Shown: piece by piece, positions 25,216-48,883 of the stretch
Position numbering within the stretch: position 1 is the stretch's first letter
Layout of the letters: every line of letters begins with the position of its first letter
Origin: Eucommia ulmoides
Lineage: Eukaryota; Streptophyta; Magnoliopsida; Garryales; Eucommiaceae
DNA: 64,000 nt
Direction: 5' to 3'
Assembly: GCA_016647705.1 (NCBI GenBank)
Contig: CM028340.1
Location: 11,485,001 to 11,549,000 of the forward strand
The notes under the pieces: model-generated
Databases searched by the model: none
What the model was told of the DNA's origin: nothing
What the model saw: only the letters and a program-made list of their open reading frames with translations
Translations under genes and position numbers: made by a program

Positions 25216-26394
25216 TGTTGAACGTTAATATTTTATGGAATTAATGGTTTTATTGAGTGATTTCATATTAAAAATTTCATAGGTTGAAATGAAAAAAAGA
25301 ATGGATCAAAAAGATTAATCATTGAAGAATTCATTGAGCAGTTATTAAAGAATCAAAGGAATTCAAGATGGGTACAAGATGAAGATAACGAAGATTTTCA
25401 GAGTATTGAAGATATTGAAGACGTTTAGGTAAAAACAACTCATTACTTTTATATTTTCAATGCAACCCAAATTAGGATCACGCACGATACTTTAAAATGA
25501 ATAATCTTATATGTGTTATGGTAAGAAGTGATAAGTTCAAGGTCTTAAATTGATTCTTATAAAGTGTTCAATAAAAAAAAATGATTTTGGTAAAGTGTTT
25601 AAGTGAAAAAATAGTTTTAACACATAAAATAATGTGTTTTCTTATCAATTTGGTCAATTTACGAAAAGGGTAGGTCGACTAATGAAAACAATAGCTTAAT
25701 GGAGTTAAATGGGTGAACCTATTGGTCAATTTGATTAATTGACGATTTAGGTCGGTCGATCAATGAATGTAGTCAAAATAAAGAAATAAGGGTAAACACA
25801 TTGGGCAAATCAGTCAACTGACGGGGAGGCCAGTCAACCAAACGTAAGCGTTGCAATGGTTGCAGGGGCAGTCGAACGACAAGGGGTCGGTCAACTAATT
25901 GGGTTAGATAGTCAAGTGTTGATTGTTTGGGTTTTTGGGCCAAATCACCTTATTTTAAACGATTTTCAAAGAGATTTTAAAGGGATTTGGATATTTTACT
26001 TTTATATATATCATATATTACTAATATAGGTTTATAACATTTATCTCCTCTGTCATTTTGTCCCAAAAAATTCCAAACTTTTCTTGTTATTCGACAAATA
26101 CCAATCAACACATTGGACCATTTTTTTTTGTAAAAAGGCATAAATGCCCTTTATTTTTAATTCTATTATATATATTTTATTTTTATTTTTTTTAAATTCA
26201 CTAAAATTATTAATTTTAAAAATATACTTTTGACCCTTATTTTTTAAATAATGTCATTATTATATTCCTACCCCCCACCTCTACCCTCCTTTTCCAGCAC
26301 CATTGCACCCCACTCCATCCACCGCTACCGCCAGAATCCACCAACACTGCCATCGTCGCCAGAATCCTCACCTTTTAAACATCAAGAAATGCTA

Positions 26395-26750
26395 TTTTTT
26401 TAGCTAGATTAACCCATGTAAATTTCTCATTCACTTCCCATTCCACTTTCCTCCTTTTCTCTTATAGGAAACACTTATTCTTGAGTGCCAACGCAAGGTG
26501 AATTCTTAGAACAACTCCTTGTAGTTCTGTTACTATCCCCATTGGCAACACCACCGTGTGATCTACAATAGGGAACCCATTGTGTGTTGTGTTTCTGAGG
26601 ACATGTACAATATGACCCACATTATCAATTCTAGCCAGCAGCATCGGTATGTTCACCAACCGTTATATTTCTCATCCATGGCTCAGAATTCGCGTCCAAG
26701 AAAGGTAGCTCTTTTAGATCGAGTATAATCTCGTAGATGCCACACCAAGA
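26395..26750 (-). pseudogene. Captured CLC chloride/nitrate transporter fragment (5' LTR copy)
   Basis: Fragment of a plant CLC-type anion channel/antiporter gene (CLC-a/b-like), from the cytosolic C-terminal region around the first CBS domain; full proteins move chloride or nitrate across endomembranes. Minus-strand reading: IYEIILDLKELPFLDANSEP (about 26,680-26,740), WMRNITVGEH, frameshift, LLARIDNVGHIVHVLRNTTH, then NGFPIVDHTVVLPMGIVTEL, QGVVLRIHLALALKNKCFL, a stop, and VEWEVNEKFTWVNLAK (about 26,397-26,445). Family proteins read NTTHNGFPVVDE, HGLVLRAHL and EWEVREKFTWVDLAE at these places. No membrane domain is present, so no transporter can be made. It lies antisense to the retrotransposon. 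Confidence 0.9.
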
Positions 26751-26971
26751 ACAACGTCGTCTCTTTCTCATTTTTCCTTTTTTTTCTCTCCCTTCCTCTT
26801 CTATATCTTTCTATCTCGTTGATCCGTCAACGGTGACGGAACTGAGAGAGAGAGAGAGAAGGAGGAGGAGGAAGAGGAAGAAGAAACAACACTTTTGAAG
26901 GAGAAGAAGTTTTAATTAGGTTAGATTTTAGGGATAGTAACAATAGGGGTGCTATTGTAAAATATTAAAGA

Positions 26972-26973
<2 letters not shown>

Positions 26974-27051
<78 letters not shown>
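26974..27051. repeat. (TA)n microsatellite
   Basis: About 78 bp of nearly pure TA inside the Pack-MULE of the 5' LTR. The corresponding place in the 3' LTR copy (about 47,322-47,368) is instead a short TA/CA repeat. Confidence 0.95.
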
Positions 27052-27055
<4 letters not shown>

Positions 27056-27833
27056 CAAATTTAGAGGATAATATATGTATTTTAATTTTGATTTATTTAA
27101 TCATTTTTAAATAGTTGAGGGTAAAATTGTCATTACAATAATTTTTTTATTATTAATTTTTCATCTATAAGAAAGGTAAGTAGTCTTTGACCAAAATGAT
27201 AAGAAGGTAGACTGATACTTGTAAAATAATAGGGGATGTATCTGATTTAGGCAAAAATTACAAAGGAAGTAAGTGGTATAAACTCTTAAAGAATAACCTA
27301 ATTCTTTTTTCTTCTTTTTTTTTAAAAAAAAAAAAAAAATTGGTATAAACCCTTACTAATATTCTATTTATTTAGTCTATATTTTAGATTATTAATTTAA
27401 TTGAATTGGTAAAACCACTTCTTATCTTTAAGAGTTTTGAATCTAAAAGGTTTTAGGGATCAAATTGAGTTTTTCTAAAAGTATTTTTAAACAAAACATA
27501 TCTATTTTGATAGTATATGTATGTGGGGGATTAAAGTGTAATATTTTATATTGTAAATTGGAAACTAGCCGTTGGAAGTCTAGTTAGAAGTCAACATATA
27601 GAGACCTGTATTTTTCAAATGAATTAATCAAGAACATTCAGCCTTTGCTATTATAAGAGAGTAAACTTACGTTGAGAAATTTATAAGAGAGTATTATCGA
27701 AAGAGTTCTTGATCGAAGTGTGAAAAAGTTTTAGTCACCGATTTTTGTTCTTCACTGAGTTAACGTAATCATTTTAATGAAATCCCTGTGAGATCTTTTC
27801 AAGTCAATTAAAGTGTTTTTTTAAATTATTTCT

Positions 27834-29929
27834 AACGCGCCCCATTTTTCCAAAAAGGAAAAAATATTAAATAATAAATAGGCTTAAGGAGAGAGGGGGT
27901 TTTTAAAGCGTCGGTTTTCTAAAAAAATATATTTAGGCCATTTTTAAAAAATAAGTAGTCGACACCTAATATTGGGTTTAAATAGTGTGCTAGGTCACCG
28001 AATTTTTAGAAAACAATTTAAAATTCCAAAGTAAAAAATTGACTCCAAAAACTACGGTCAAACCAGATATTCATTTAAAGGTTCGGGAGTCGGTTACGCT
28101 CGGAGAAGGTGTAAGGCACCCCGAAGGTGTCCATTCGAAAATAGTACCTTATGTCCAATTAAGTACAATTAGTTTAGTCCAAGTGTTTTGTTTTATTTTG
28201 AAATCATTCCCTTCTTATAAAATCTTTTTGATATTTTCACAAATAAGGTGAGACAAGTTTTTGGATTTTTTGAAATGTTCCTCCGGTATAACCTCTTATC
28301 GAATATTAAAAATTCGATAAGGATAGTTCCCAAGGTGGTATTTATATATGTTTCCTAAAGACTTCTTTATTTTAAATGAGCAAACTCAAATAAGTGAATA
28401 AACATGAAAACATAAATGCAAAAACTAAAATTATATAAGTTTATTTTATATGCAAAAATGACCAAAAAAGAACAAAATGGTTTAATTTAAATATGTCGAT
28501 GTAAACTGATATGAATACTATGTGAATTAACTTGATTATATGTGATAATGATTTAATTATAATAAAAAACGTAAGTGGTGCAAGTGTCGTGACTAGGTAT
28601 GAAAAAGTAACATGGATTTATGAAATTAAAAAAGAAAACTATGTGTAGAAAAAAAAATATGTAAATGATGAAAGTGTACTAAATATGTCGTCTAAATAAT
28701 GCAAGCAAAGAAAAGTCTACTTTGAGTTTGCCCGATTAATTTAAAGAAGCCCCGATTTGAAATCCCCTCAAATTCTATGGATATGAGAATCGAGAGGGGT
28801 TTGCGGAAACAATTTAGTTGAAATTAATCTTTCCGAAACTTAAACGAAATCCCACGAAAAATCTACCGAGGGAAGAGATTTCCTAAAACCATTCGTTTCT
28901 AAATTCCACTCGGGTTGGGGAATGAAAACGAGGCCACAGAAAACTTTCTCATGATTTATCGAATCATCGGATTCAATTTAAGGTTTGTAATGATTAATTC
29001 CGACCAATAAAATATTTTATTATTATTATTTTTTTATTTTTTAGGGTTTTGATAAGAAGAATAAAATAAAAATAAAAATGCAGAAAAATACAAAATAAAA
29101 AAAAATACAGTAAAATAAATAATAAAACATCTTTCACCTAACACTCGGAGTTAGGTTTAAGTATGAGAAACTCACTCCGGCGTTTTCATCGGATCATAGG
29201 ACGACTTGTTTTTTTAGTTTTTCCTCTTTATTATAATAAAATAAAAAAAGATGCAGAAAATAAAAAATAAAAAATAAAAATAGTGAGATACAGATGTCCT
29301 CGTTTAAATGCTTAAAGATTCAGATCGAGAATGAGAAACCTTATCCTGACGTTTTTCATCGAGTCATCAGACAATAAAAAAAAAAAAAAAAACTTGCAGG
29401 AATTTAAGTTGCGAAGAGAATAAAGTAAACTGAAAAAAAAAAAAAGAATTAAAAATAAAAAAGCGTACCTGTTCTTAGGCCAATAATCTCAATGCTCGAG
29501 CTTTTCTCTCGCGCAGACGGCTTCCCAAAAGGTTTTACGATGATAATCACTTTCTAAGGATTTTTTCTCTCAATTTTTGAATCTCCCCGAAGGATTTCTC
29601 TCTAAATTTTTGTTGTGTCTAAATTATGATGAGGAAGGTCTTATTTATAGAAAGGATGTGGAGTAAAAAATCCTAGAAACTCTAGGAAACCATAGTCCCA
29701 ATTCGATGAGGAAAATGAAACAAAACCTAAAAGGAAAGGGAAAAGAAAACGTAATCCCATTTTGACAAGGAAACCTTTTCTTTTCTTTTCTTTTTTCTTT
29801 TTTTCTTTTATCTCTGTTTTCTTTTTTTCATTTTTTCTTTTCTTTTGTCTCTATTTTTTTTTAATTATTTTTATAAAATAAAAATAAAGTATAATTTTTT
29901 TGCGGGACGGTCAAAATGTTATGTCTAGA
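27834..29929 (-). repeat. 3' LTR of the Tat-type element
   Basis: 2096 bp, aligned with 35,075-37,963 once the 797 bp insertion there is removed. The plus-strand left end is TAACGCGCCCC (TGACGCGCCCC in the other LTR) and the right end is TGTCTAGA (TGTCTATA in the other), both decayed from TG...CA termini. The characteristic AGGTGTAAGGCACCCC occurs at about 28,107. Confidence 0.9.
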
Positions 29930-32650
29930 GCTGCCCTTCTTTGTCATGCGAGTTCCACTTGCTTGACAAAGACAAAAGACCAAGTCATTTTGATCGTCTC
30001 ATTTTCTAAATTTTTCAAAGTATTTTTTTTATAACAAAAGACAAAATTAGACAAAAACGATTATTTTCAGGGTGTGATGGAAAAAGATGGGAATGAAATA
30101 TGGATGAATTGCGACAAAACCCTACGAGGGCTGCCTACGTATCTCGACAGTGCCAAGAATCAAGTCACACGTAATTCAACATATGCCTCAAGTAAGGCGA
30201 TAAAAGAATGCAAATATAAAGTGGCTCTTACGGAGAGGTAATGCAGAATATAGAAAATAGTCATCATGGAAAGACCAAATACAAATGGAAAAGCCATCAC
30301 GGAGAGGCAAAAATGCAAAAAAATGAAAAGTCACCACGGAAGGGTATAATTCAAAAAAATGACAAGCCACCATGAAGGGGCATAATGCAAAATGAAAGGC
30401 CGTCACGGAGAGGCACAAATGCAAAATGAAAAGTCATCACGGAGAGGCCGAATGCAAAAATGAAAAAACCATCACGGAGAGGCAAAATGCAAAATGAAAA
30501 GGTCATCACGGAGAGGAAAAAATGTAAAAATGAAAAGCCACCACGGAGGGACAAAATGCAAATGGAAAAAGCCACAACGGAAGGGCGTAATGCAGAATGA
30601 AAAGCCACTGTGAAAGGGGCATAATGCAAAAATGAAAGGCCATCACGGAAAGGCAAAATGCAAAAATGGAAAGGCCATCACGGAGAGGCCAAATGCAAAA
30701 ATAAAAAGGCTATCACGGAGAGGCCAAATGCAAAATTGAAAAAGCCACCACGGAGGGGCGTAATGCAGAATGAAAAGCCACTGTGAAAGGAGCATAATGC
30801 AAAAATAAAAGGCCATCACGGAGAGGCAAAATGCAAAAATGGAAAGGCCATCACGAAGAGGCCAAATGCAAAAATAAAAAGGCCATCACGGAGAAGCCAA
30901 ATGCAAAATTGAAAAAGCCACCACAGAAGGGCATACGTGAACTAAGGGTAGGATATAAAATATACCCCAACTAGTGGCTGGGGCTGCCCAGTTCAAAAAA
31001 TCTCTAAATACAAAATAGACAAATTCCATATAATAAAATTGACACTTTGATGACCGAACCTTTACAGGTTGCCTACGTACCTTAGCATTAAGCTGAGGAT
31101 CAGGTTTAGCGTAGTTCATTGAACGCCCCTTTTAGAGCAAAACGCATACTTGGATGCTCATTTAGAGCTTCTGAATTTTTAGTAATTAGAGTCTCCAATT
31201 TGAGTCTGCCAGAAAGTGAGAGGTCCTAGTGTCCATGTTTCTAGTCCTTTTCGAGATCCCTGTAAGTGGATAAGAAAACACATGGAAAATAAAATTTTAG
31301 TCTGAAAGCTTGTCACCTTTGATGACTCGCAATTCCGTTCCCCCCTTTCGGTCGTAATCGCTTCGGCTGATGGCGCTTAGATCGGAGCAATATCGAGAGA
31401 TTCCTTCATATGAATTTAGAAGCTTTGCTTTCCAACTCAGGGCCTGACATGCCTTGGGGTGATCCGATATGTTTTATCAAGGTCTCCTTAGCTTGCTCGA
31501 CTAGATTCTTGTCTTTTTAAATTTCTAGGTGATTCGATACTTGGGGTTCTAATACTCCTGCATGCTCTGTGTTTTCTCAAGTCCTGCAAAACTGATTTAA
31601 TCTAAAAAAATGGGCAAATGTCGAAAATTACTAAGACAAGTACCTTCAAAGCCCGATATGATTTTATATGAGATCTTGAGTCGGATTGCAGAGGAATACG
31701 GTTTCAATACATTTTCAGACCATGACCAATGTTTCTTTTCACAAATTCTGATTCCATTCAAATCTATCAAGTTCTGATCTCGAAAAATGTCGTTTGCCCG
31801 CCAATTTAGACCGAGGTGAAAAACTTGAACAAATCAATCTATATTTTTTCTTCTCTTAAAATATTTTTCACATTTGCAACAACGCTTCTTGCTCGGTTAT
31901 TTCACTTTTCATTTTTCCTTTTTTTTTTTTTCCTTTTTATTTTTTATTTTTTTAATGGATGATTGAACTTACAATGGTTCAGAGGCAACCGAGCTTATCA
32001 ATGAACTTGATCATCTTTGCGAATTGAGACCTTCTTGCAATATTTGAGAGTTTCTTCATTGGGATCATTGGCTTGGGATGATTGTGTTCCATTTTTTCCA
32101 TTGGGTAACTTGGACAGTAGGCGAACCAGGATATTTATACTCAGTTTTATCAATCACTAAAGGACCACCAGAGATAGCTCGATCAACTTGCAACAATATA
32201 TCAAAACATCGTTAGGACAATGGATACCAATCTTGTTTTCAAATCCTCCAGTACTCTGGAATTGCTTTCGGATTTGGTTAGGGGTCTTTTGGATCTTACC
32301 GTCATTTAGCTAAACATAGTCTTCCTTTGTTTCTAGTCCAATTAGATCGTGGTTTAGCTTTGTATTGAAATTATATATATGCATCCTCGCCCAGTCATAC
32401 CACATACAACATATGCAGGCGATTTTGGGTACCTAAAATAGTAAAATTCAAACATTAGACCACAGTTTTGGATAAACAATATTTCATTATTGAAATTTAA
32501 AAAGCCATTACAGAGCAAATTCTTTTCCATCCAAAAGACCAACGGGATGGAGAGATGAGTATATGAAAACGTTCCAATTTTATCAAAACTTCTAGCGAAT
32601 TGAAAGTAAACAAGAAAATCCAATTTTGCAGCCTTTAGATTTTTCAAATC
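29930..32650 (-). other. Internal noncoding region of the Tat-type element
   Basis: Begins with the polypurine-like AAAGAAGGGCAG next to the 3' LTR (minus strand). GCTGCCTACGTATCTC (about 30,130) and GTTGCCTACGTACCTTAG (about 31,070) are a repeated phrase flanking the minisatellite. No pol domain was recognised; the 103-codon frame at 32,354-32,665 lacks known motifs. Confidence 0.7.
30180..30930. repeat. Minisatellite with a 173 bp higher-order unit
   Basis: About two dozen variants of a 25-36 bp unit of the form AATGCAAAATGAAAAGGCCA followed by TCACGGAGAGGC. The right-hand part has a second level of order: the block starting GCCACAACGGAAGGGCGTAA at 30,571 recurs at 30,744 and again begins at 30,917, exactly 173 bp apart. 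Long open frames across it (such as 30,351-30,656 minus) come from the repeat and are not genes. Confidence 0.95.
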
Positions 32651-32659
32651 GAGCCTCAG

Positions 32660-34504
32660 GCACATGACTCGCTCCTATCTCCACCAACATTTTGGTAAAA
32701 ATTGACTTCACCACTCCTTGAAGGTGCATGCTCAGGTAACGGATTCTGCTGACAGTTTGGCGAACCAGTCTCAGGTTATTTAGGAAACGTGATGGCTCCT
32801 ATCCGTATGAACTCTTAAATTTTGTCTTTTAGCTGAAAGCACTGCTTGGTCACATATCTTCTGGTTCCTGAGTGGTATTCATAGAAAGCATTTGAAGAAG
32901 CTGCTTTACTCTCAGGTTTAACTTCATAGAATAGAAGGGGTGTCAGCATCCCCTACTTCAAACAACTCCGGTACAACTCGGTGATTGAGACCGAAAGGTC
33001 TAGTGGTTCCTTGTCATCGTTCCGGAAGTTTCCCCTAGTAGTACGAGGCAGATAGCCTTGATGGTATTGGGTTCTTGGCTTGAAGGTGTGGTTAGGAATT
33101 TGAGGCGGTAGATTTTGGTTTGGCTGATATGAGGGTGTTTGGTAGGCTTAGGGATAATATTGGGGAGTATGGTTTTGGTAAGGTGGAGGTGCGTTTTTGT
33201 AGTAGCAGGGATAGCTTTGGGAATAGGGTTGGTTCTCGGGGTAATATTGGTTTTGGTGATGTTGAGGAAAATAGTTGTGATATTGGTTGTTCTGGTTCGG
33301 GTAATTTTGGGGATAGGAAGCTTGGGGATTGTTTTGGTGGAGGGTTTGTTGGAGGAAAACGATAATAGCTACCTCATCTTCTCTTTTCTTTGGTGGGGCT
33401 AACCTCTTTGTCGGGTCAGGCAAGACCTCTTCAATCTTTTTGTTCCTTATTCTTTCTTCTGTCACCTCGGCTTGCTTGATCTCATCACCAAAGGAAGTCA
33501 CTACTATGCTCGATAGATCTCGATAAAACGACGGCGTCTGGATTTACTTGAATATCTCTAATTGAGCCTCCTCGCTCAGCCTAAGGACAACTTTGGCAGC
33601 TTCCTCCTTCCAGTAGACAGTGTACTTTCGGAAGCTTTTATCTTTTCTCTTCGTATCTGGTAGAGGGTATTACGGTTCAGCGCCGCATCTTTATTGTACA
33701 CATACTGTTCACAGAAGGCCTCTACCAGATCCTCAAACGTCTTAATCTATGCTAGGTCTAAGGTCATGTACCAGTTGAGAGTCGGTCCTTTCAATGATCG
33801 TCGGAACATCTTCAAGCAAAGGTCTTCGTTCCGAGCATGAACTCTCAACTTCTCCTCGTAGATACTGACATGCCATTCTGGGGGGCCAGTACTGTCATGC
33901 TTCGTGAACTCTGGAACTATAAATTTTTTGGATACACCACCTAGGGTGGTACTGACAGCTCCTTATATGCCGTTTTTCTTGATGGTTTCTAATTTTTTAG
34001 TTATTCTATGGTTTTCTCTAATTCCTCAATTTTCAAAACCCAGGCTTGGGAAGGTCCATCTTCGTTTCTGTTTGCGGTTTCAATGGCCTGGGCTGGTCGA
34101 TTAGCATTCAGATCATTTAGCGGAGCAACGACCCTCTCTGGGTGGATGAAGATCTGGGCTGCGGGAAGGGCCAAACCTTCGGGTGGAGCCTGATAGATAT
34201 ACCCTTGGCTTGGGTATACTGGTGCTCCATAGGCGAAAGGATGAGAGCTCATCTGGGGTCCATAGTAGACCGATCCAGCGAAGTTCGGGCTGGCATGGTT
34301 TGGATTCGGCACTGAGTTCTCCATCCCGGCTCTTGGAGGGTTTCCATTTGGTGATTCAATCACAAGAGTTCCACTGGATTGGGGAACAGGCACCTCTTGA
34401 GGCCGACTAAATTCGTTAATCCTTTCCCTCAGCATGTCAATGGTTTCTTGCATACGAACCATATGGGCTGCACGTGGAGATTCGGGATTGCCTTCTAATG
34501 TCAT
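32660..34504 (-). pseudogene. Tat/Ogre-type gag polyprotein, decayed
   Basis: Gag of the nested gypsy element, the structural protein that packages element RNA. It starts at the ATG at 34,504: MRERINEF-like coil region, then a proline/asparagine-rich stretch (34,001-34,504). The retrotrans_gag domain follows at about 33,590-33,930: KFIVPEFTKHDSTGPPEWHV, MFRRSLKGPTLNWYMTLDLA, stop, IKTFEDLVEAFCEQYVYNKD. Next comes a Q/N/Y/P-rich section (33,148-33,501). The C-terminal part (about 32,690-33,050) has ITELYRSCLK, FYEYHSGTRRYVTKQCFQLK and QNPLPEHAP, matching the YHSGxxGHxTExCxxLK and NPLPxH blocks of Tat gags. Stops and frameshifts throughout; the zinc-knuckle-like C and H positions are partly lost. 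Confidence 0.88.
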
Positions 34505-35074
34505 CTTGGAATGAGTTTGGGCCCGGCTGCAAGAAAAGACCGGACTTCAGATGAAGGGAACTGGAATTGCTTTTCTGGGACCAATTTTTCTGTTTCGTCC
34601 TGTTCTACGCCAAGCCCATTTATTAGTCCACGTGGGTATTAAGTAGCCTTAAAATCCATTCGAGTTCGAAGTTTTCAATTCCGATAATGACCGATCAAAA
34701 TAGATAAAGATTTGTGAAAATTCTTTCGTTACTTAGTCGGTATTAGAAACTTTGAACGCGTTTGGTTTTTAAGACTTTCTAAGATATCATCAATCCATCA
34801 AGTATCAAACCCCATTCCATATCTTGTATTCATAAAATCCTGTAGGGATAATATGGATACAAGACCACCGTACTTGTATTGGAGGGTTTACAATAATATA
34901 AGAGCCCGAGAGAAAATAACGAAAAGAAGAAAGGAAACTAACATCACAACTCATTTACAAAAATTGAAGGAAAAGATAACAAAAATAAAATATAACATTC
35001 GGATATGGAATACTTGGACTTATTTGGACATATTAGGCTCGATCCTCTAAACATTCCCCAGTGGAGTCGCCAGC
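34505..35074 (-). other. Leader and primer-binding site of the Tat-type element
   Basis: Minus strand: the 5' LTR ends GGGGCGCGTCA at 35,075. Two bases on lies TGGCGACTCCACTGGGGA (about 35,055-35,072), complementary in form to a tRNA-Arg 3' end as described for Ogre elements. About 550 bp of leader precede the gag ATG. No other gene is seen. Confidence 0.8.
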
Positions 35075-37963
35075 TGACGCGCCCCAATTTTTCAAAAAGA
35101 AAAAAATAATAAATAATAAATAGGCTTAAGGAGAGGGGGGGTTTTAAAGCATCGATTTTCTCAAAAAAATATATTTAGGTTGTTTTTAAAAAATAAGGAG
35201 TTACCACCTAACATTGGGTTTAAATGGTGTACTAGGTTACCGAATTTTTAGAAAATAATTTAAAATGCCTAAGTAAAAAAATTGACTCCAAAAACTACGG
35301 TCAAACCAAATATTCATTTAAAGGCTTGGGGGACAGTTATGCTCCGAGAAGGTGTAAGGCACCCCAAGATACCCGTCCGAAAATGGTACCTTATGTCCAA
35401 TTAGTTTAGTCTGAGTGTTTTACTTTATTTTGAAATCATTCCCTTCTTATAAAATCTTTTTGATATTTTCACAAATTAGGTGGGACAAGTTTTTGAATTT
35501 TTTGGAATGTTCTTCCGGTATAACCTCTTATCGAATATTAAAAATTCGATAAGGATAGTCCCCGGGAGGTATTTATATATGTTTCCTAAAGATTTCTTTA
35601 CTTTAAATGAGTAAACTCAAATAAGTAAATAAACATTAAAATATGAATGAAAAAACTAAAATTATATAAGTTTATTTTATATGCAAAAATCACCAAAAAA
35701 GAACAAAATGATTTAATTTAAATATATTAATGCAAACTGATATGAATACTACGTGAATTAACCTGATTATATGTGATAATGATTTAATTATAACAAACAA
35801 TGTAAGTGGTACACATGTCGTGACTAGGTATGAAAAAGTAACATGGATTTATGAAATTAAAAAAAAAAAAACTATGTGTAGAAAAAAAATATGTGAGTGA
35901 TGAAAGTGTACTAAACATGTCATCTAAATAATGCAAGCAAAGAAAAGTTTACTTTGAGTTTGCCCGATTAATTTAAAGAAGCCCCGATTTGAAATCCCCT
36001 CAAATTCTATGGATATGAGAATCGAGAGGGGTTCGCGAAAACGATTTAGTTGAAATTAATCTTTCGGAAACTTAAATGAAATCCCACGAAAAATCTACCG
36101 AGGGAAGAGATTTCCTAAAATCATTCATTTCTAAATTTCATTCGGGTCAAGGAATGGAAACGAGGTCACATAAAACTCTCCCACGATTTAACGAATCGTC
36201 GGATTCAATTTAAGGTTCGTAAGGATTAATTCCTACCAATAAAAAATTTTATTATTTTTTTATTTTTTTATTTTTTAGGGTTTTGATAAGAAGAATAAAA
36301 TTAAAATTAAAATTAAAAAAATACAGAAAAATACAAAATAAAAAAAATACAGCAAAATAAATAATAAAACATCCTCCACCTAACACTCAGAGTTAGGTTT
36401 AAGCATGAGAAACTCACTCTGGCGTTTTCATCGGATCATCGGACGACTTGTTTTTTCAGTTTTTCCTCTTTATTATAATTGTTGGTGCATAAAACTGGTA
36501 CACACCTCGAGTATGATCCAGTCGGATGACGGGTAGGTTCTCTTGCTGAGGTGGAGTCGTCGGTTGAAAAGTCCTTGCGTGAGCTGTGCTAGGTCCTGGG
36601 AGGACTGACTTGCTGTACCCAGAGTCCTGCTCCTCAGGGAGTGTACTTGCAGAAGGCTCAGACCGAAGTTTATCCCAATGAAGCCCCTCCGGCGTAGTAA
36701 TCAACGCTCAGAGAGAAAATGTATAGAATATAGCAAGTAAACAAATGAACTCGCGCATAATGTAAGTCATTAAAGCGTCCCTCGGGCTTACATAGCCCCC
36801 GATATATATAGGCGTTGGAGATGATTAGTCTGGTCTAAACACGATTAATTAGTCAAAACCCTGTGTTTAGCCGATAATCCAAGGCGTTTAGGAGATAATC
36901 GTTGGACTTGGTCTTTTGGGCCCATTTGGTGAAGCCCGCAGGCCTTTGTTAGGCTTGCGGCAGTGAGCTAGTAGAGGAAATAAGAGATCCGTGGAGTCCT
37001 CGAGAAGAAACAAGGTGAAAATGGGAGTCAATCGAGGTGAACGGCGGAATCCCTAAAATTGATCGCCGATGGCACGGTGCAGAGTTCAAAGCGGCACGTC
37101 CCTGCGGGGCTCTTCGCTCCTCCTTGGGTGAAAATGAGATTCTAGGGATGAGTCGTAGTTGGTGTATGCTCCAGCGTAGCGTTGTGAATTCCGGAATGCG
37201 TCCATGTTACTGCGAGGGTTGACACGTGGCTGAGTTCTAAGTGCTAATTCAGAGGTGCCCAAAAATACCCTCATCAATAATAAAATAAAAAAAGATGCAG
37301 AAAATAAAAAAAATAAAAAAACAACGAGATACGAGTGACCTCGCCTAAACGCTCAAAGATTCAGATCGAGAATGGGAACCTTATCCTGACGTTTTTCATC
37401 GAGTCATTGAACAATAAAAAAAGAAAGCTTGCAGGAATTTAAATTGCGAAGAGAATAAAGTAAACTGAAAAAAAAAAAAGAATTAAAAATAAAAAAATAT
37501 ACTTATTCTCAGGCCAAGGCCAAGAATCTCGATGCTCGGACTTTTCTCTCGCACAGACGGCTTCCCGAAAGGTTTTACGATGAGAATCACTTTCTAAGGA
37601 TTTTTTCTCTCAATTTTTGAATCTCCCCGAAAGATTTCTCTTTGAATTTTTGTTGTGTAAACTATGATGAGGAGGGTCTTATTTATAGAAAGAATGTGAA
37701 GTGAAAAATTCTAGAAACCCTAGGAAACCCTTGTCCCAATTCGATGAGGAAAATGAAACAAAACCTAGAAGGAAAGGGAAAAGAAAACCTAATCCCATTT
37801 TGACAAGGAAATATTTTCTTTTCTATTTTTTTTTCTTTTTTTCTTTTATCTCTGTTTTCTTTTTTTCTTTATTTTTTTTTCTTATTTTTTTAAAATAAAA
37901 ATAAAATAAATTTTAAAATAAAGTATAATTTTTTTGCGGGACGGTTAAAATGTCGTGTCTATA
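35075..37963 (-). repeat. 5' LTR of the Tat-type element, interrupted
   Basis: 2092 bp without the 36,480-37,276 insertion. It matches 27,834-29,929 with moderate divergence, clearly less than between the two copia LTRs, as expected for a younger insertion. Confidence 0.9.
36480..37276 (-). mobile_element. Gypsy-type solo LTR inside the Tat 5' LTR
   Basis: 797 bp with plus-strand ends TGTTGGTGCAT and ACCCTCATCA, and a perfect target duplication ATAAT (36,475-36,479 and 37,277-37,281). On the minus strand it begins TGATGAGGG, like the LTR at 16,672-17,316, and contains CCTATATATATCGGGGGC (about 36,800) as a likely TATA box, so it is oriented on the minus strand. GC content is higher than its host. 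The short open frames on both strands are not genes. Confidence 0.88.
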
Positions 37964-37968
37964 ATTTC

Positions 37969-38766
37969 TTTAATCACTTGGATTAAGGATTTTAGAAAAA
38001 TGGTTTTCAAATCCAATATCGTGAAAATCTTTTAAAACATTCTTTTGTGAAATATGATTATTTATTGTTTGTGCTTTAAATTGATTCAATCAGATTTGTG
38101 CCTCACATAAATTTATCACATAGTTTTCGGGACATTAATTGAGTATAATTATTTTGAGGTGAAAGAAGCTCCTGTGGGAAGAAACTTGTGATTTTTTTTT
38201 TTTTTTGTGTTTGCGAGTTTGAGTAAATTAAACATATTTGGAACGGTGTCTAATCAAGGTAGTTAAGTTTAATATTTAGCCTGAGAAAAAGTTTAGGGTT
38301 TTATCTTTAGCCTTTGAAAAAGATTTGGTTCATGTATAGCATTTTAAAAGATTAGGTTTTGATTTTTCTTGTAATAGAATTAGTGTAAGATAAGTTTTTT
38401 TCTAAGTTTGTGAAAAGAATAAGTGTAATAGTGTAAGAGTATAAATGTTGATTCTCAGCCTACGAAAAGAATTGGGATTGTAATTGTTTGGTTTCTACAT
38501 TAGAAAAGAGTCAAGGGTTAATGGATTGCGAAATCCCTGTAGAGCTCGGGGGACTGAACGCAGGTAAGAGTAGCTTGCCGAACCAAGATAAATCTTTGTG
38601 TACTGCATTGTTAAATTTTTGTTGTTTGGTTTTGTACTTAGTTAAACACATTTCCATTACTTGACAAGATAATAATCAATTAGGAAAAATGATAACTTGT
38701 ATTTGAATTAATTGTTTAAAGTTTTGTCACTACCCAATTCACCTCCCTATTATCTTTTTGCCAACA
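37969..38766 (+). repeat. 5' LTR of the copia element, right part
   Basis: Continues the 5' LTR after the gypsy insertion and aligns with about 48,090-48,883. It ends CTATTATCTTTTTGCCAACA at 38,766, immediately before the primer-binding site. Confidence 0.92.
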
Positions 38767-38768
38767 AT

Positions 38769-38780
38769 TGGTATTAGAGC
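38769..38780 (+). other. Primer-binding site (initiator tRNA-Met)
   Basis: TGGTATTAGAGC two bases after the 5' LTR. It differs by one base from TGGTATCAGAGC, the standard copia primer site. It fixes the element's orientation as plus. Confidence 0.93.
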
Positions 38781-38823: not shown

Positions 38824-41750
38824 ATGGCACACCACATAAACACTCCAACTGAAAGACAACCTATGCATCGTCCTCCTTTGTTTACAGGTGATAATTATGT
38901 ATTCAAGAAAGACAAAATGATTGTCTTCTTACAAGCCACCAACTATGAGTCTTGGTTGGTCATTGAGGATGGTCCTTGATCGCACCTCATTTTGTGCGAT
39001 TTTATACCTCTAAATTTAGGTTTGTTAATCGTTCGAATAATATAAATTATCATAAATACAATTATTTTAGTTATTCATGTATGTTTATGAAAATGGACCA
39101 AAACAGCGTTAAAATGGGGCAAATTAGATTAAAAACGAATAAACCACAACGATCTTAACAAAAGCTGAATAAAAACCAATTAAACTAGAATGAATTGTTC
39201 GATCCCTTAATAATATAAAAAATTGATTTATTTTATATGGTTTTGTAGGTTTTTGAAAAATGAATGAAATGATATTGAGTTGGAGTAAATCGGATAAAAA
39301 ACGAGCAAACCACGATGAGCCGAACGAAAAGCCGAAAGAAACCAAGTGCAGACGGCTCAGCGAGTAGCGCATTGCGCGACTCGGTTCGCCAAACAAAGAG
39401 AGAATCCGAGCTCGGCTCGACTTGCGTGGAGCCCGAGCTCGGCTTCCGCTACAACAGACAGCCTCGTAATGCGCGTGACTGTCGCTAGTGGCCAAGTGGG
39501 TTTCCCACTTGGCCACTTGCCCCCCTCCAATTTTTTTTCCTTTTACATTTTTGACCCTCAACTTTTGACAGCCTGTTTCTAGGTCAGTTTTACCTCACTT
39601 ATATCATAATTTTGGATCATTTTACCCTCCAAGACTCCTTGTTGGTGCCTATAAATATAACTTGAGGGTTCATATTAAGGAGCACACATTTTCTATAAGC
39701 ATTTAAAGACTTAATTTGGAGGAACTATCAAGAAGTCTTGAAGCCAATCTTCATTAAGGTTTTGCTTTATTTTATTATATATTTCAAATTTTTCTTATAT
39801 TAAAATTAAGGATGGAACCTTCTTTAATTAATTAAGTTGTTATATTGTGTTAATTCCAATCAATTTGCAATTTAATGCTTAGGGTTATTGTTTCAATTAA
39901 ATAAATTATTTCATCTTTAATATTATGTATTATTAATTTTTATAAATTATTTAATATTTGGATTTGTATTGTAAAACAAGTAATATCTTTTGATTATATG
40001 TTTTCCATTAAATTGTATACATATAATACTTAAGAACTACGATTTTAAAAGCGAAGAAAAACCAATTTGAAATTTACATCGGGCTTAATTTCTAATATCT
40101 TAAGAGGATAGTAAGATTTATTTTCAAAACTATCGCTAAAAATTTAGAGTCAACACAATAATAAGAACTAAATTAATTATACATCGGTGGATTCTGAAAT
40201 CTTAGTATCTCTCCATCTTCATTCAAGTTAAATTAGTTATTTCACTGTTTATTTAGTTTTCTGTTCACAATATCAACATCATCTTGAACTATATTATAAT
40301 TAAATTAAATTGGACTGATTAAGTTTTTCTATAAATAATCCTCGTCAGATCGACCTCGCTTCCGTTAATCTTTGGTACAATTGATTCGTGCGCTTGCGAG
40401 TATAATTTAAAACAAGACATAACCAATTTTTGTCACAACAGTCCTTATGTTCCTAAAGAAAATGGAGTGGTTAAAAAGAAAGAACAGTTAGATTCGACTA
40501 CCAAACAAAAGTTATCTAATAATGCTCAAGCTATAAATCTTTCTTTCTTTTTTGTTCCTTAGATGCAAATGAGTATAACAGGGTTTTAGGTTGCAAATCG
40601 GAAAAAGAAATATGGGATTCATTACATATTACACAAGAGCGAACAAATCAAGTGAAACAGTCTAAAATCAATGCCTTGGTCCATCAATTTGAACTGTTCA
40701 AAATGAGTGATCCAGAAATAATTCTGGATATGTACACTCGATTCACCAATATTTGCAACAGTCATGGAGCATTTAGAAAGCCATATTCCATGCAGGATAC
40801 GAAAGATTTTGAGATCATTAGCTAAAGTATGGGAGCTAAAAGTAACAGTGATGAAGGAAGTTAAGGATCTCACCAAATATACACTCGATGAACTCATTGG
40901 TGACATAATGACCTATGATTCAACTATTTGTGGATACGAGGATGGATCAGGAAGCAGCAAAAAGAAATATTTGTCACTGAAGGCTTAAAAGAATAAAAAG
41001 AACGATGACAATGATGATGTAAGTCTTGGTAGTGAACAACAAAAGGATTTGGCACTTCTCACCAACAATTTCATAAAGATGACCCGACAAATATTTCGAG
41101 GAAAGAAAAATTTCAATATGAATAATATTGAATGCTACAACAGTCATAAAACTAGTCACTTCCAATATGATTGTCCCTAGCCGAAGAAGGATAAAAAGAA
41201 GAAAAGAAAAGAAAAGAAAATTTTCAAAAAAGGGCAAGAAAAAGTCTACAAAAGCCACTTGGTATGACTCGGAATCAAACAGTTTTGAAAAATATAGTAG
41301 CGACAATTCATCCATGCTTGCTCTAATGACCATTGGAGATAAGATAACTAAATATTCTAGTTCTTGTCCTTCAAACTTTGAGTAATTATTTGATGTCTAT
41401 CAAGAACTAATGCATGATCATAAAATCAGTGTTCATAAATAAATGATTTACAAAGTACAATTAACACACTTTACAAACAAGTGGTTAAATTTGAATCTGA
41501 AAACAATGACTTAAAATCCAACATTTCGGATCTAAGTTCTATTGTTTTCAAATTCACGGGTGGTGAAAATAATTCAAAAATACTTTTGGGAACTTCAAGA
41601 GGAATATTTGATAAAACTGCAATTGGTTTTCAGAAAAATATTAAACAAAAGAGATTTTATAAATTCTTTTCTGAAACTAAAAATCTTGTTAGATGTTTTA
41701 ACTTTAATGTTGTGGGGAATACTATAAAGATGTATTTTCAAAGATGATCT
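38824..41750 (+). pseudogene. Ty1/copia gag, interrupted by a solo LTR
   Basis: Gag of the SIRE/Maximus-like element. It starts at the ATG at 38,824 with RPPLFTGDNYVFKKDKMIVF (family consensus PPLFxGENYxxWKxxM), then YESWLVIEDGP, cut at 38,976 by a solo LTR. It resumes at 40,441: LDSTTKQKLSNNAQAINLSF, then a UBN2-type region (SEKEIWDSLHITQERTNQVK, ALVHQFELFKMSD, KYTLDELIGDIMTYD). A CCHC zinc knuckle follows at about 41,132-41,178 (CYNSHKTSHFQYDC), with the second cysteine replaced by serine. Next is a lysine-rich tail (41,185-41,260). Stops occur at 40,986 and elsewhere. RNA packaging function is lost. Confidence 0.9.
38977..40440 (+). mobile_element. Athila-type solo LTR inside copia gag
   Basis: 1464 bp, TGATCGCACCTCATTTTGTG... 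to ...CACAACA, with a perfect target duplication GTCCT (38,972-38,976 and 40,441-40,445). The start resembles the Athila-like LTR at 4534 (TGATCGCGCC). CCTATAAATATAACTTG at about 39,648 is a likely TATA box, and TTCGTGCGCTTGCGAG near the end resembles other Athila LTR ends. The open frames at 39,124-39,582 are not genes. Removing the insertion restores the gag reading order. Confidence 0.9.
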
Positions 41751-41989
41751 AAATATAAATAGATATGAGTTCCTAAAAGAACAAAAATTGTCCCGCTAAC
41801 AAGATCAGACCTACTTAAACTGGGTATCACTTAGGAACTATTTGAGATGTTCCTTACGGGTTATTCTAAAAACATCATTAGGTAAGAAAAAAATGGTCCC
41901 TATATAGTGGTTGTTCTTGGCACATAACGGGCAAAAAATCTAAATTTACGTCTTTAACACTTAAAGACGGAGGTCATATGACTTTTGGA

Positions 41990-43330: not shown

Positions 43331-43449
43331 AGAATCTAATCCATTTATGTCGATAAAAGATTTGGATGATGATCATGTAAGTATAATGACAAAGCAAAAT
43401 AACTAAGAAGCTAAAACAAGAAAAAAAAAAAAAAAAAACATCAAATCCT

Positions 43450-45148
43450 AAGGATAAGGAGCCACAAAATAAAGGGACGACTTTACCACGAGTTATAAAG
43501 ACAATTCTGGGACATTCGGTAAAAGAAATTATTGATAATTTCAAAAAATGTGTAAGTACTAGGTCTTCCCTTAGAGATATCATTAATCTTGCATTTCTAT
43601 CTCAAATTGAACCTAAAATTGTTAATGAAGCTTTAACTGGTGAATCTTGGATCTCTGTGATGTAAGAAAAATTACTTTAATTTAAGAGAAATAAAGTTTG
43701 ATCTCTAGTTCCTAGACCTGACTTTCATCATATTATTGGTACTAAATGCATTTATCATAATAAAAAGGATGAAACATGTATGGTAATTAGAAGCAATGTA
43801 AGATTAGTAGTACAAAGCTATAATCAATAAGAAAGAATTGGTTATAACGTAATATATGCATCTATGGCCAGATTAGAAACTATTAGAATGCTATTAGCGT
43901 TTGCATGTTCACATAATTTAAATTATTTCAGATGGATGTCAAGAGTACCTTCGTAAATGGTTTTTTAACTAAAGAAGTTTATGTGGAACAACCACCGGGT
44001 TTTGAAAATGATAACTTACTTGATCATGTTTTTAAACTACGAAAAGCTCTATACGGACTCAAACAAACTCCTTGGGCTTGGTATGGGAGACTTAGCTGGT
44101 ACTTAATTCAAAATAGTTTTCGACGTGGTCTAAGTGATACAACTATGTTTGTTAAGCAAAATGAATCTGACATCCTATTGGTACAAATATATGTGAATGG
44201 TATCATTTTGGTTCTACTAATGAAAATTTTTGCCAAAAGTTTGCCAAGATGATGTAGTTAGAACTTGAAATAAGTATGATGAGAGACTTAACTTTCTTTC
44301 TTGGGCAACAAATCAAACAAACTAAAGAACAAATATTTATCAATTAAGCCAAGTATACCAAGGGGTTTCTAAAGAAATATGGTATTGGTGGTGCTAAACA
44401 ATATAAAACTCCCATGGTAACAATTATAAAAATTGAAAAAGATGATACGGGCAAAAATGTCAATAAAAAGATGTATCGAGGTATGATCCATAGCTTGTTG
44501 TATCTAACTGCTAGTAGACCTGATACTATGTTTAGTGTTTGCTTGTGTGTGATATTTCAATCTTGCTTGAAAGAATTGCATCTAACCTCGGTCAAGCGAT
44601 TCTTTCGATATTTAAAGGGAACTTATGATCTAGGATTATGGTATCCTAAAAGGAATGATTTTACATTGACTAGTTACTCCGGTACTGATTTTGGTGGATG
44701 TAAAGTTGAGCGTAAAACCACAAACGGTTCATGTCATTTCTTGGGACATACTTTAGTTTCTTAGTCAAGCAAAAAACATAATTCTATTGCCTTATCTACG
44801 ACTGAGGAAGAATATATGGCAACTGGTAATTTTCGTGCACAAATTCTATATATTAAATAACAATTATATGATTTTAGAATTTGCATGGAGGAAGTACTTG
44901 TTTACTGTGATAATAAAAGTGTTATATGCTTAAATAAGAATCCAACACGGCACTCACAAACTAAACACATAGAGCTACGTCATCATTTTATCCGTGATCA
45001 CATTCAGAAAAGAGATGTTACTATTGAATATGTTGATACTTCTAACCAACTTGTTGATATTTTTATTAAACCCCTAGCTGAAGATCAATTTATGAAAATT
45101 GTTCAAGTTTTAGGCGTGGCTAAACATAATGATTTATGCTTAGAATAA
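43450..45148 (+). pseudogene. Ty1/copia reverse transcriptase and RNase H, decayed
   Basis: VSTRSSLRDIINLAFLSQIE, then EALTGESWISVM (about 43,555-43,665) begin the RT region. ARLETIRMLLAFACSHNLN and MDVKSTFVNGFLTKEVYVEQ (43,870-44,000), then LRKALYGLKQTPWAWY, are RT core. The catalytic YVDD reads YVNG at about 44,191-44,202 (QIYVNGIILV), so both aspartates are gone. MRDLTFFLGQQIKQTKEQIF follows; MYRGMIHSLLYLTASRPDTM and RYLKGTYDLGLWYPK lie at 44,470-44,655. RNase H has VYCDNKSVICLNKNPTRHSQ, TKHIELRHHFIRDH and IFIKPLAEDQF (44,885-45,148). Frames are broken at about 43,665, 43,830, 44,252, 44,346, 44,764 and 44,860. Confidence 0.93.
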
Positions 45149-45435
45149 TATTTTGATCTTTCATCTCTGCTTTTTGAGATGACAAAGGTGGAGAAGTTGT
45201 ATGTTATTTAATAGTTGTTCTCCTAAGCATTGCAATCATATAGGAGGATAAAAAATTTAAGGGGAGCAATGTATTATGCTATGTTGAAAATCTTTCTGAT
45301 AAATGTTTGTATTTCTCATTAACGGTGCTTAAACGAGTTGAAAAAAATAAATCGTTATCAGATTTAGGGAGAGCGTGGTTATATTATTTTTTAGAAAACA
45401 TTAAAGTTAATTATCATCATCAACAACTGGAAGAT
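45149..45435 (+). other. 3' noncoding region of the copia element
   Basis: Between the RNase H end and the 3' LTR. The bases before the LTR (AACTGGAAGAT) are a decayed polypurine tract; related elements have AAAAGGGGGAGAT here. No extra (env-like) frame is seen. Confidence 0.7.
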
Positions 45436-46639
45436 TGTTGAACCAAATATTTTGATGGACAATTAAATGTTGATGTTTTATGAAATTAATAGTTTTATTG
45501 AGTTATTTCATATTAAAAGTTCTATAAATTGAAATGAGAAAAAGAATGGATAAAAAAGATTAATCAATGAAGAATTCATGGAGCAATTATTGAAGAATCA
45601 AGAAAATTCAAAACAAGTGCAAGATGAAAATAATGAAGATTTTCAGAGCATTGAAGACGTTTAGGTAAAAACAACTCATTATATTTATAATTTTAATACA
45701 ATCCAAATTAGGATTGCACACGGCACTTTAAAATGGATAATCTTATATGCATTACGATAAGAAGTAATAAGTTTAAGGTCTTAAAATGGTTTATAAAGGT
45801 TTAAATCATTAAAAAAAAATTAATAAAGTGTTTGGGTGAAAAAAAATGATTTTAACACATAAAATAATGTGTTTTCTGGTCAATTCAGTCAACAGATGAA
45901 AAAGGTAAGTCACTAATGAAAACATTAGCTTAAGAGAGTTAAATGTGTGAATCTACTAGCCAATTCGATCAACCGACAATTTAGGCCGGTCAAATAACGA
46001 ATCTAGTAGCCGAAACGAAGAAATATGGGAAAACACACTAGGCTAATCAGCCAAACGACGGGGAGGTCGATCAACCAGCCGCAAGAAGTGCAACTATAAA
46101 AAAGTTAATTATTGTTGGGGCAGTCGACCAACAGGTGGTAGGTCAACCGATCGGGTTAGACAGTCAAATGTTGATTGTTTTGGTTTTTGAGCCAAATCAC
46201 CTTGTTTTGAACGATTTTCAAAGATGTTTTAAGGGATTTGGGTATTTTAATTTTATATATCATATATTACTAATATGGGTTTATACCATTTACCTCTCCT
46301 GTCATTTTTCTCATAACCACAAACTTCTCTTATCATTTGACAAATAACAGTCAACCTTTTTTACCACTTTTTATTTTGTAAAAAAGACATAAATGCCTTT
46401 TTTTTAATTCTATTATTATTTTTTTTAAATTCACAAAAATTATTATTTTCAAAAATATACTTTTGACCCCTATTTTCTAAATAATTTCATTATTCCATCC
46501 CCACTCACCCTCTCCTTTCACCACCACTGCACCCCACTCCATCCGCTGCCGTCACTAGAATCCACTATCGCCGTCACTGCTATCGCCAAAATTTTCACTT
46601 TTTGAACATTAAGAAATGCTATGGAGGTACAATGAAAAG

Positions 46640-47075
46640 GCCCAAAATTGTCTTCAATCTATGATAACTATCTCCTCAATATTCCTTGGTCTTTCAGCCA
46701 TATCAGCCCATTTCTCTCTCACTTCCAATTCCTATGTCCTTTTCTTCTCTTGTAGGAAACACTTTTTCTTGAGTGCCAACACAAGATGAGCTCTTAGAAT
46801 AACTCCATGCAGTTATGTCGCCAGTTTCATTAGCAGCACCACCTCGCGATCTACCATAGGGAACCCATTGTGTGTTGCGATTATGATGACATCCATAATT
46901 CGACCCACCTTGTCAATTACATCCAGTGTGATAACAGGAGGCTTAGCATCAGCCAATTCATGAATCGTTATATTCATCATCAATGGTTCATGATTCCCGT
47001 CCAAGAAAGGTAGCCATTTTAGATCAAGTATAATCTCGTAGATGTTGCACCAAGAGCAGAACCATCTTCTCCTCA
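46640..47075 (-). pseudogene. Captured CLC chloride/nitrate transporter fragment (3' LTR copy)
   Basis: Better preserved copy of the CLC fragment. Minus-strand reading: IYEIILDLKWLPFLDGNHEP (about 46,985-47,043), LMMNITIHELADAKPPVITL, DVIDKVGRIMDVI, THNGFPMVDREVVLLMKLAT (about 46,815-46,875), stop in place of E, LHGVILRAHLVLALKKKCFL, QEKKRT, stop, LEVREKWADMAERP, NIEEIVI. This follows the order of plant CLC-a/b-like proteins through the start of the CBS region. The remainder of the C-terminus and the whole membrane part are absent. A frame runs continuously from about 47,361 to 46,813 because the upstream CT/CA repeats happen to be open; it is not a gene. Exon boundaries were not determined. 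Confidence 0.92.

Positions 47076-47082
<7 letters not shown>

Positions 47083-47125
<43 letters not shown>
47083..47125. repeat. (CT)n microsatellite
   Basis: Nearly pure CT run beside the CLC fragment; GA-rich sequence follows at 47,163-47,210. The 5' copy has only a short GA run (about 26,844-26,862) here. Confidence 0.95.
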
Positions 47126-47127
<2 letters not shown>

Positions 47128-47322
47128 CTTTCTCTCTATCAAATCCGTCGTCTGCGACGGATCTGAGAGAGAGAGAAAGAGAAATAGAGAGGGAAAGAGA
47201 GAGAGAAAATGAATGAGCAAAAGAGGAGGAGGTAACACTTGTGAATGAGAAGAAGTTTCAATTAGGTCAAATTTTAGGGATAACAATAATAAGGGTGTTA
47301 TTGAAAAAAATAAAAGAAGATA

Positions 47323-47370
<48 letters not shown>

Positions 47371-48883
47371 ACAAATTTAGAGGGTTATTTATGTATTTTA
47401 ATTTTTAATTATTTAACCATTTTTAAATAGTTGATGGTAAAATTGTCATTATAATAAAAACATTTATTAATTTTTCATCTATAAGGGATGTAAGTGGTCT
47501 TTGACCAAAATGATAAGGAAGTTGACTGGTATTTGTAAAATAACTAGGGAGATATTTGGTTTATGCTAAAATAACAAGGGATGTAAGTAGTATAAACCCT
47601 TACTAATATTCTATCTATTTGGTTCATATACTAAAATATTATTTTAATTGAATTGGTAAAACTACTTCCTATCTTTAGAACTTTTGAATCTAAAAGGTTT
47701 TAGGAACCAAACTGAGCTTTTCTAAAAGTATTTTTAAATGAAACGTATCTATTTTGATAATATATGATATATGGGGTATTAAAGAGACATTTTTGGTCTC
47801 ATAAATAGGAAACTAGTCATTGAAGGTCTAGTTAGAAGTCTATATATAGATACCTGCGTTTTTCAAATTAATTAATCAAGAACATTCAGTCTTTGCTATT
47901 ATAAGAGAGTAAATTTACGCTGAGAAATTTATAAGAGAGTACCATTGAACGAGTTCTTGATCGAAGCACGAAAACGTTTTGGTCCATCAGTCTTTGTTCT
48001 TCACTGAGTTATCGTAATCGTTTTAAAAAAAAAATCAAGGTGAAATCTTTCCAAGTTAAATAAAGTGCTTTCTTAAATTATTTGTTTAATTATTTGGATT
48101 AAATGTTTTAGAAAAGTCATTTTCAAATCTAATATCGTGAAAATCTTTTAAAACGATTTTTTTTGTGAAATTTGATTATTTATTGTTCGTGCTTTAAATT
48201 GGTTAAATCAGATTTGTGTCTCACATGTATTCTATCACATAGTTTTCAAGACATTAATTGTGCATAATTATTTTGAGGTGGTAGAAGCTCCTGTGGGAAG
48301 AAACTTGCGAATTTTTTGTATTTGAGAGTTTGAGTGGATTAGACATATTTGGGATGGTGTCTAATTAGGATAGTTAGGGTTAATATTTAACCTAAAAAAA
48401 TATTAAGGTTTGATATTTAGCCTGTGAAAAAAATTAGGATAATCTTTAGTCTTTAAAAGATTAGATTTTGATTTTTCCTGTAATAGAATTAGTATGAGAT
48501 AAGTTTTTTCCTAAGCATGTGAAAAGGATAAGTGTAATAGTGTAAAAGTGTAAATATTGATTTTGAGCCTGCGAAAAGAACAAGATTGTAAGGGTTTGGT
48601 TCCTACCTAGGAAAAAAAATCAAGAGTTAATGGATTGCGAAATCTCTTTGGAGCTCGGGGGACTAGACATAGGTAAGGGTAATTTGTCGAACCTGGATAA
48701 ATCGTTGTGTGTTGTATTTTTTTAAATTTATGTTGTTTGAGTGTGCACTTAGTTAAACACATTTCCCCTTCTTAACAAGACAATTATCAATTAGGAAAAT
48801 TGATAACTTGTGTTTGAATTAATCGTTTTAATTTTTGTCACAGCCCAATTTACCTCCCTTTTGGGTAAATCTTTGGGCCAACA

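What the first reader, a model, noticed from the sequence alone, without database searches (positions are those of the whole stretch)
26028..47599. A gene-capturing Pack-MULE rides inside both LTRs of a copia retrotransposon
Seen: each LTR holds a ~1.3 kb block with long inverted ends and the identical 10 bp target duplication TTACTAATAT, and each block contains the same antisense fragment of a CLC-type chloride/nitrate transporter gene. Known: Pack-MULEs capture host exons; reverse transcription regenerates both LTRs from one template. Inference: a MULE carrying CLC sequence landed in an LTR of an ancestral copia element, which then copied it to both LTRs here and possibly to many loci. A DNA transposon's captured exon thereby gained a copy-and-paste route, and the copia promoter region acquired antisense CLC sequence that could seed siRNAs against the host transporter.
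Basis: partly seen in the sequence, partly recalled or inferred. Interest (0 to 1): 0.88.

Follow-up and report, generated by a model that had tools for sequence, protein, structure and literature searches.

The report
Gene-carrying DNA transposon inside copia LTRs
In a plant genome, a small cut-and-paste transposon that had picked up a piece of a chloride/nitrate transporter gene landed in the terminal repeat of a copia retrotransposon and was copied into both ends of that element: a clear nested-transposon fossil seen once, with no sign that it is widespread or active.

Summary
Both LTRs of one old copia element (25216-48883) carry the same TIR transposon at the same site (26028-27352, 46277-47599), each flanked by TTACTAATAT. 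Related LTRs show the insertion: at 43 of 48 scorable other sites the 10-bp sequence is single with nothing between the flanks; none of the 48 carries the insert. The transposon fits a 10-bp-TSD, Mutator-like family whose TIR 20-mer has 1,180 matches against 5 for a reversed control. Its middle holds ~390 bp of one exon of a CLC-a-type gene, antisense to the copia genes; the probable donor is C15:548135-548527, 84% identical. The transposon copies differ no less than the LTRs around them (K 0.230 against 0.191), so the insert was probably there when the copia integrated, soon after capture. "Possibly many loci" is not supported: the CLC piece was found only in these two LTRs and the donor. Both CLC copies look unconstrained. 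siRNA action on the donor is untested; 16 and 8 21-mers still match it. A composite of two known kinds.

The parts
25211..25215 (.). Left target duplication of the copia element (ATGCT)
   Evidence: partner ATGCC at 48884-48888, 4 of 5 identical
25216..27832 (+). Copia LTR1, left part (TGTTG...), with the Mutator-like block inside
26018..26027 (.). TSD TTACTAATAT, left of block 1
26028..27352 (+). Block 1: Mutator-like element in LTR1, with decayed TIRs and a 67-bp tail at 27286-27352
26392..26740 (-). CLC exon fragment in block 1 (82% to donor, internal 17-bp gap)
27353..27362 (.). TSD TTACTAATAT, right of block 1
27833..37963 (-). Younger nested LTR element splitting LTR1 (own LTR K2P 0.095-0.111; TSD ATTTC at 27828-27832 and 37964-37968); minus strand and Tat/Ogre-like judged from a PBS-like motif, recalled
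37969..38766 (+). Copia LTR1, right part (...CAACA)
38769..38780 (+). PBS-like TGGTATTAGAGC (likeness to initiator-Met tRNA recalled)
40523..40822 (+). Copia gag piece (Retrotran_gag_2)
   Evidence: E 1.5e-9
43917..44249 (+). Copia reverse transcriptase piece (RVT_2)
   Evidence: E 4.7e-26
45436..48883 (+). Copia LTR2 (TGTTG...CAACA), with block 2 inside
46267..46276 (.). TSD TTACTAATAT, left of block 2
46277..47599 (+). Block 2: Mutator-like element in LTR2; TIRs ~80-94 bp, GGGTTTATACCATTTACCTC...
46658..47044 (-). CLC exon fragment in block 2 (84% to donor C15:548135-548527); the frame stops inside the fragment
47600..47609 (.). TSD TTACTAATAT, right of block 2
48884..48888 (.). Right target duplication of the copia element (ATGCC)

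Best explanation
A non-autonomous Mutator-like transposon took up ~390 bp of one exon of a CLC-a-type gene, becoming a Pack-MULE. It then inserted, with a 10-bp duplication, into an LTR of a copia element. That element was transcribed and reverse-transcribed. Both LTRs of a new copy are built from one template, so the daughter integrated here (outer TSD ATGCT/ATGCC) carried the Pack-MULE twice, at the same site. Shown: both blocks, shared TSD, related empty sites, probable donor exon, divergence order. Inferred: the reverse-transcription step itself (general LTR biology) and, if the site lies in U3, that the founding insertion was in the 3' LTR, because a U3 insertion in a 5' LTR is not inherited. 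After integration both copies drifted, and a younger LTR element landed in LTR1. No present function is indicated.
For: Four TSD copies at the right places. Empty sites: of 49 distinct scorable LTR sites, one is the window's LTR2; of the other 48, 43 have the two flanks overlapping by exactly the 10-bp TSD, 5 differ by small indels, none has the insert. Family: TIR 20-mer (up to 2 mismatches) at 566+614 places against 2+3 for the reversed pattern; of 11 relatives, 5 have 10/10 TSDs (one of them inside a TA repeat) and 4 have 9/10, 2 fail, with end shifts up to 6 bp allowed; random pairs tested alike 0.15% and 1.5%. Capture: none of these 11 has a match to the CLC stretch, and the four aligned with the blocks share the arms. 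Timing: MULE K 0.230 (0.196-0.269) against LTR K 0.191 (0.170-0.213); MULE below LTR in 3.2% of bootstraps. Of 366 three-way CLC sites, 12 are shared by both copies against the donor, 10 of these at third codon positions, while 35 and 47 are private.
Against: No autonomous element with these TIRs was identified, so the link to a Mutator transposase is by TIR, TSD and capture only. Block 2 TIR identity is 62/82 at 80 bp, just above the 75% of PMC3903597, and 72/97 at 94 bp, just below; block 1 fails. The alignments are ~80% and AT-rich, so divergence figures carry alignment error. The sister LTRs are the best 30 of 40 scored out of 2512 and 5194 candidates.
Confidence: 0.92

Rival explanations
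1. The MULE entered one LTR after the copia had integrated, and gene conversion or recombination between the LTRs copied it to the other.
For: LTR-LTR conversion is known in general (recalled); only one carrier element was found.
Against: Conversion would make the block pair more alike than the flanks. It is not more alike: K 0.230 against 0.191, and 0.266 against 0.176-0.215 in the first measurement. Conversion very soon after integration escapes this test.
Confidence: 0.04
2. Two independent insertions into the same site of the two LTRs.
For: None beyond the identical site; the family has over a thousand TIR matches.
Against: Same CLC fragment with the same right end and orientation, and no other CLC-carrying member found in the genome.
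Confidence: 0.005
3. The copia itself picked up the CLC exon (retrotransposon transduction) and the inverted ends are incidental.
For: LTR elements with gene fragments are common: 425 intact maize elements (PMC2774510, passages).
Against: The block ends are family TIRs with 10-bp TSDs, found alone at other sites; sister LTRs have a single TSD-site copy.
Confidence: 0.01
4. The composite has regulatory effect: antisense CLC RNA made from the LTR gives siRNAs against the donor transporter gene.
For: CLC lies antisense to the copia genes; 16 (block 1) and 8 (block 2) exact 21-mers still match the donor locus.
Against: Old, decayed, the only carrier found; one LTR broken by a nested element; private changes in the CLC copies show no third-position excess (12/17/6 and 16/14/17); no RNA data.
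Confidence: 0.03

Closest known systems
Pack-MULEs (non-autonomous Mutator-like elements with host gene fragments)
   Same: TIR family with 10-bp TSDs, short (0.7-1.6 kb in the 11 relatives read), shared arms, host exon fragment in the middle of one member
   Different: This copy sits in an LTR and was doubled with it; only one CLC-carrying lineage was found; no transposase-bearing partner identified
Ty1/copia LTR retrotransposons carrying gene fragments
   Same: A host gene fragment is inside an LTR element and was copied with it
   Different: The fragment came in as cargo of a DNA transposon and lies in the LTRs, so two copies are made per integration
MULEs nested in other transposable elements (maize, rice; PMC3903597)
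   Same: Mutator-like element inserted in another transposable element; that paper reports 9% of maize and 7% of rice candidate coding MULEs in other TEs (passages)
   Different: There transposase-coding MULEs were counted; here a gene-carrying element without transposase was then transposed with its host

Membership tests
Mutator-like element (MULE) | TSD of 8-11 bp (criterion in PMC3903597, passage) | tested here: met
   10/10 in both blocks; 9 of 11 relatives with at most 1 mismatch in 10, control 1.5%
Mutator-like element (MULE) | TIRs over 75% identical (PMC3903597) | tested here: inconclusive
   Block 2: 62/82 at 80 bp, 72/97 at 94 bp; block 1: 54/86; 9 of 11 relatives 78-88% at 80 bp, L005 and L078 below
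Mutator-like element (MULE) | Same ends on an element coding for a Mutator-type transposase | tested here: inconclusive
   MULE transposase domains are plentiful (150 scored of 2936 candidates) but their loci could not be cut out; the one long TIR pair read (L081, 3.7 kb) has no frame over 92 aa
Pack-MULE | Internal fragment from a non-transposon host gene | tested here: met
   CLC-a-type exon, donor C15:548135-548527, Voltage_CLC in the same exon
Pack-MULE | No transposase in the element | tested here: met
   Only one ATG/GTG/TTG frame of 150 aa or more inside the blocks, CLC-derived plus simple repeats; shorter frames were not scanned
Ty1/copia retrotransposon | Copia gag and reverse transcriptase between LTRs with TG...CA ends, PBS and a 5-bp TSD | tested here: met
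   Retrotran_gag_2, Pol_BBD, RVT_2; TGTTG/CAACA; TSD ATGCT/ATGCC, 4 of 5. The pieces I took for integrase and RNase H gave no Pfam match above a curated cut-off

The most novel reading that the evidence does not exclude
The copia/Pack-MULE composite works, or worked, in trans: antisense CLC sequence transcribed from the LTR, helped by the inverted GA/CT stretch inside the block, gave siRNAs that silenced or methylated the donor CLC gene.
Probability: 0.03. Interest if true: 0.7.

Novelty: new variant of a known kind. Interest (0 to 1): 0.36.

Why it matters
It is a clean natural case in which a gene fragment captured by a cut-and-paste element changed vehicle to a copy-and-paste one, with the order of events readable from one locus: capture, insertion into an LTR, retrotransposition soon after, later nesting. 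It shows that LTRs can carry DNA-transposon cargo, delivering two copies per integration, and gives a test (insert divergence against LTR divergence) that can be run genome-wide to count such events. That no second carrier was found suggests that the route was weak here.

Tried and rejected
First empty-site count ignored loci lying on the minus strand; redone on both strands, and only that count is used. In one search two loci (L012, L041) also pair with a neighbouring LTR copy 859 and 1324 bases on; both have the plain empty site and no MULE match, so they are counted as empty. Seven of 60 loci could not be scored for both flanks (L014, L017, L025, L031, L036, L054, L067); of these only L036 has a MULE match, and it is simple repeat.

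Possible further carriers were chased and rejected: two places that seemed to run across the left junction (L082, L083) and the seven that ran 20 or more bases past the right junction (L084-L088; L089 and L090) match the MULE but show no LTR flank; they lie at unrelated AT-rich sites.

A long pair of TIRs (L081) was read in the hope of an autonomous element; no frame over 92 aa. TIR places (100 listed of 1,180) and transposase places (150) were not compared systematically.

A first attempt at Pfam with a whole locus failed. Pfam gave nothing for four other frames of the window.

Literature: Pack-MULE with chloride channel, 0 papers; Mutator-like with 'in both LTRs', 0; MITE with 'inserted into the LTR', 0. 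Six other searches showed no described case of a Pack-MULE doubled in LTRs in the listings or in the passages I read of seven papers. They cover open-licence papers only and phrase matching is narrow.

Full report
WHAT IS THERE. The window lies in a 947-Mb genome (391 contigs, C16:11485001-11549000). The CLC-a and copia matches fit a plant; no call names the species. One Ty1/copia element on the + strand runs from 25216 to 48883. LTR1 starts TGTTG and ends CAACA; it is 25216-27832 plus 37969-38766, because a second, younger LTR element (27833-37963, TSD ATTTC) is inserted in it. LTR2 is 45436-48883. The outer target duplication is ATGCT/ATGCC. Gag and reverse transcriptase pieces match copia Pfam families; the frames are broken.

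THE BLOCKS. At the same point in both LTRs lies a ~1.3-kb block, 26028-27352 and 46277-47599, each flanked by TTACTAATAT, which occurs nowhere else in the window. Block 2 has inverted ends of about 80-94 bp (62/82 and 72/97 identical); those of block 1 are more worn (54/86 and 61/101), and block 1 has a 67-bp tail ending in a second TATAAACCC.

EVIDENCE OF INSERTION. With the LTR flanks as queries, 60 loci were fetched (30 of 40 scored in each; 2512 and 5194 first-look candidates). 53 of 60 could be scored for both flanks; they are 49 distinct sites, one of them the window's own LTR2. Of the other 48, 43 have the two flanks overlapping by exactly the ten bases of the TSD, 5 show small indels there, and none carries the block. 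Of the 58 loci other than the window's own, 55 have no MULE match and 3 (L033, L036, L065) match only in simple repeat. A diverged copy inside this window (15356-16613, minus strand) is also unoccupied: its flanks meet at 15906-15915, where 6 of the 10 TSD bases remain. Junction searches: on the left only the two LTRs of this element span the joint in full (40 of 753 candidates scored), and two partial spanners are lone MULEs. On the right block 2 alone spans it in full, LTR1 matching in two pieces because of its tail (40 of 1492 scored); the seven places running 20 or more bases past the MULE end show no LTR flank.

WHAT KIND OF TRANSPOSON. The terminal 20-mer with up to 2 mismatches has 566 + 614 matches in the genome; the reversed control has 2 + 3. 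Of 11 relatives read in full, 5 have a 10/10 TSD (one in a TA repeat, so uninformative), 4 have 9/10, and 2 (L005, L008) fail; random position pairs, with the same freedom of +-6 bp at each end, reach 10/10 in 0.15% and 9/10 or better in 1.5% of 3300. Published MULE criteria ask for TIRs over 75% and TSDs of 8-11 bp (PMC3903597, passages). The TSD is met; TIR identity is met by 9 of 11 relatives at 80 bp, is borderline for block 2 and is not met by block 1. A transposase-coding partner was not identified, so Mutator membership rests on structure.

THE CAPTURED EXON. Block 2 positions 46658-47044 and block 1 positions 26392-26740 match one stretch of a single open frame at C15:548135-548527, 84% and 82%. 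That frame is in a CLC gene: Voltage_CLC E 8.2e-25 and a sub-threshold CBS match. The peptide from block 2 matches CLC-a structures, though no Pfam family by itself. The stretch lies within one exon, so it cannot tell DNA from RNA as the source. None of the 11 relatives has a match to the CLC stretch; the four aligned with the blocks share the arms and have other or no sequence where CLC sits. Genome-wide the CLC part has three matches out of three candidates: block 2, the donor and block 1.

ORDER AND AGE. LTR pair divergence is K2P 0.191 (0.170-0.213, 1991 sites); the block pair is 0.230 (0.196-0.269, 986 sites), lower than the LTRs in only 3.2% of bootstraps. A later transfer from one LTR to the other would have made the blocks more alike than the flanks. 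Among 366 three-way CLC sites, 12 separate both copies from the donor, 35 are private to block 2 and 47 to block 1, and 6 differ in all. Ten of the 12 shared ones are at third codon positions (8 of 10 when the badly aligned first 34 columns are left out), as expected if most arose on the donor's constrained side. So capture, insertion into the LTR and retrotransposition probably followed each other closely, compared with the time since. With recalled rates of 1.3e-8, 7e-9 and 4e-9 per site and year, integration would be 7.4, 13.7 or 23.9 million years old. The nested element is younger (0.095-0.111), as it must be.

WHAT IT DOES NOW. Probably nothing. In block 2 the CLC frame stops inside the fragment, and block 1 has a 17-bp gap. 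Private changes fall on codon positions 12/17/6 (block 2) and 16/14/17 (block 1), with no sign of protein constraint. The CLC piece is antisense to the copia genes, and 16 and 8 exact 21-mers still match the donor locus; that leaves room for siRNAs but is no evidence of them.

KNOWN OR NEW. Pack-MULEs (PMC4858842, passages), gene fragments in LTR elements (425 maize elements, PMC2774510, passages; rice and sorghum, PMC3726574, passages) and MULEs nested in other elements (PMC3903597, passages) are all known. I saw no described case of a Pack-MULE doubled in both LTRs in nine searches, which cover open-licence papers only. The behaviour follows from known biology; the combination is a well-documented variant.

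Noticed in passing
window 27833-37963: A younger LTR element nested in copia LTR1 (TSD ATTTC); its right LTR is itself interrupted by a ~0.8-kb insert at 36480-37276; a PBS-like TGGCGACTCCACT on the minus strand suggests Tat/Ogre gypsy (recalled motif).
   Followed up: partly
window 8909-11315 (+), 12096-14274 (-), 15356-16613 (-), 55234-57557 (-): Four more LTR-like stretches of the same or a related family in this window, 59-68% alike in their pieces, without the block.
   Followed up: partly
window 61155-61316: Weak match (62%) to the right arm of the Mutator-like family; possible further, old copy.
   Followed up: no
window 27286-27352: Block 1 has a 67-bp tail ending in a second TATAAACCC directly before the TSD: partial duplication of the terminus or a small insertion.
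   Followed up: no
window 30206-30935 and 1104-2206: Two tandem repeat arrays seen in the self comparison.
   Followed up: no
own genome, many contigs (e.g. C2:2609864, C5:551321, C14:55390305): A MULE-transposase family with an open frame of 757 aa and the same score (67.5 bits) at many places: possibly a recently active Mutator-like family.
   Followed up: no
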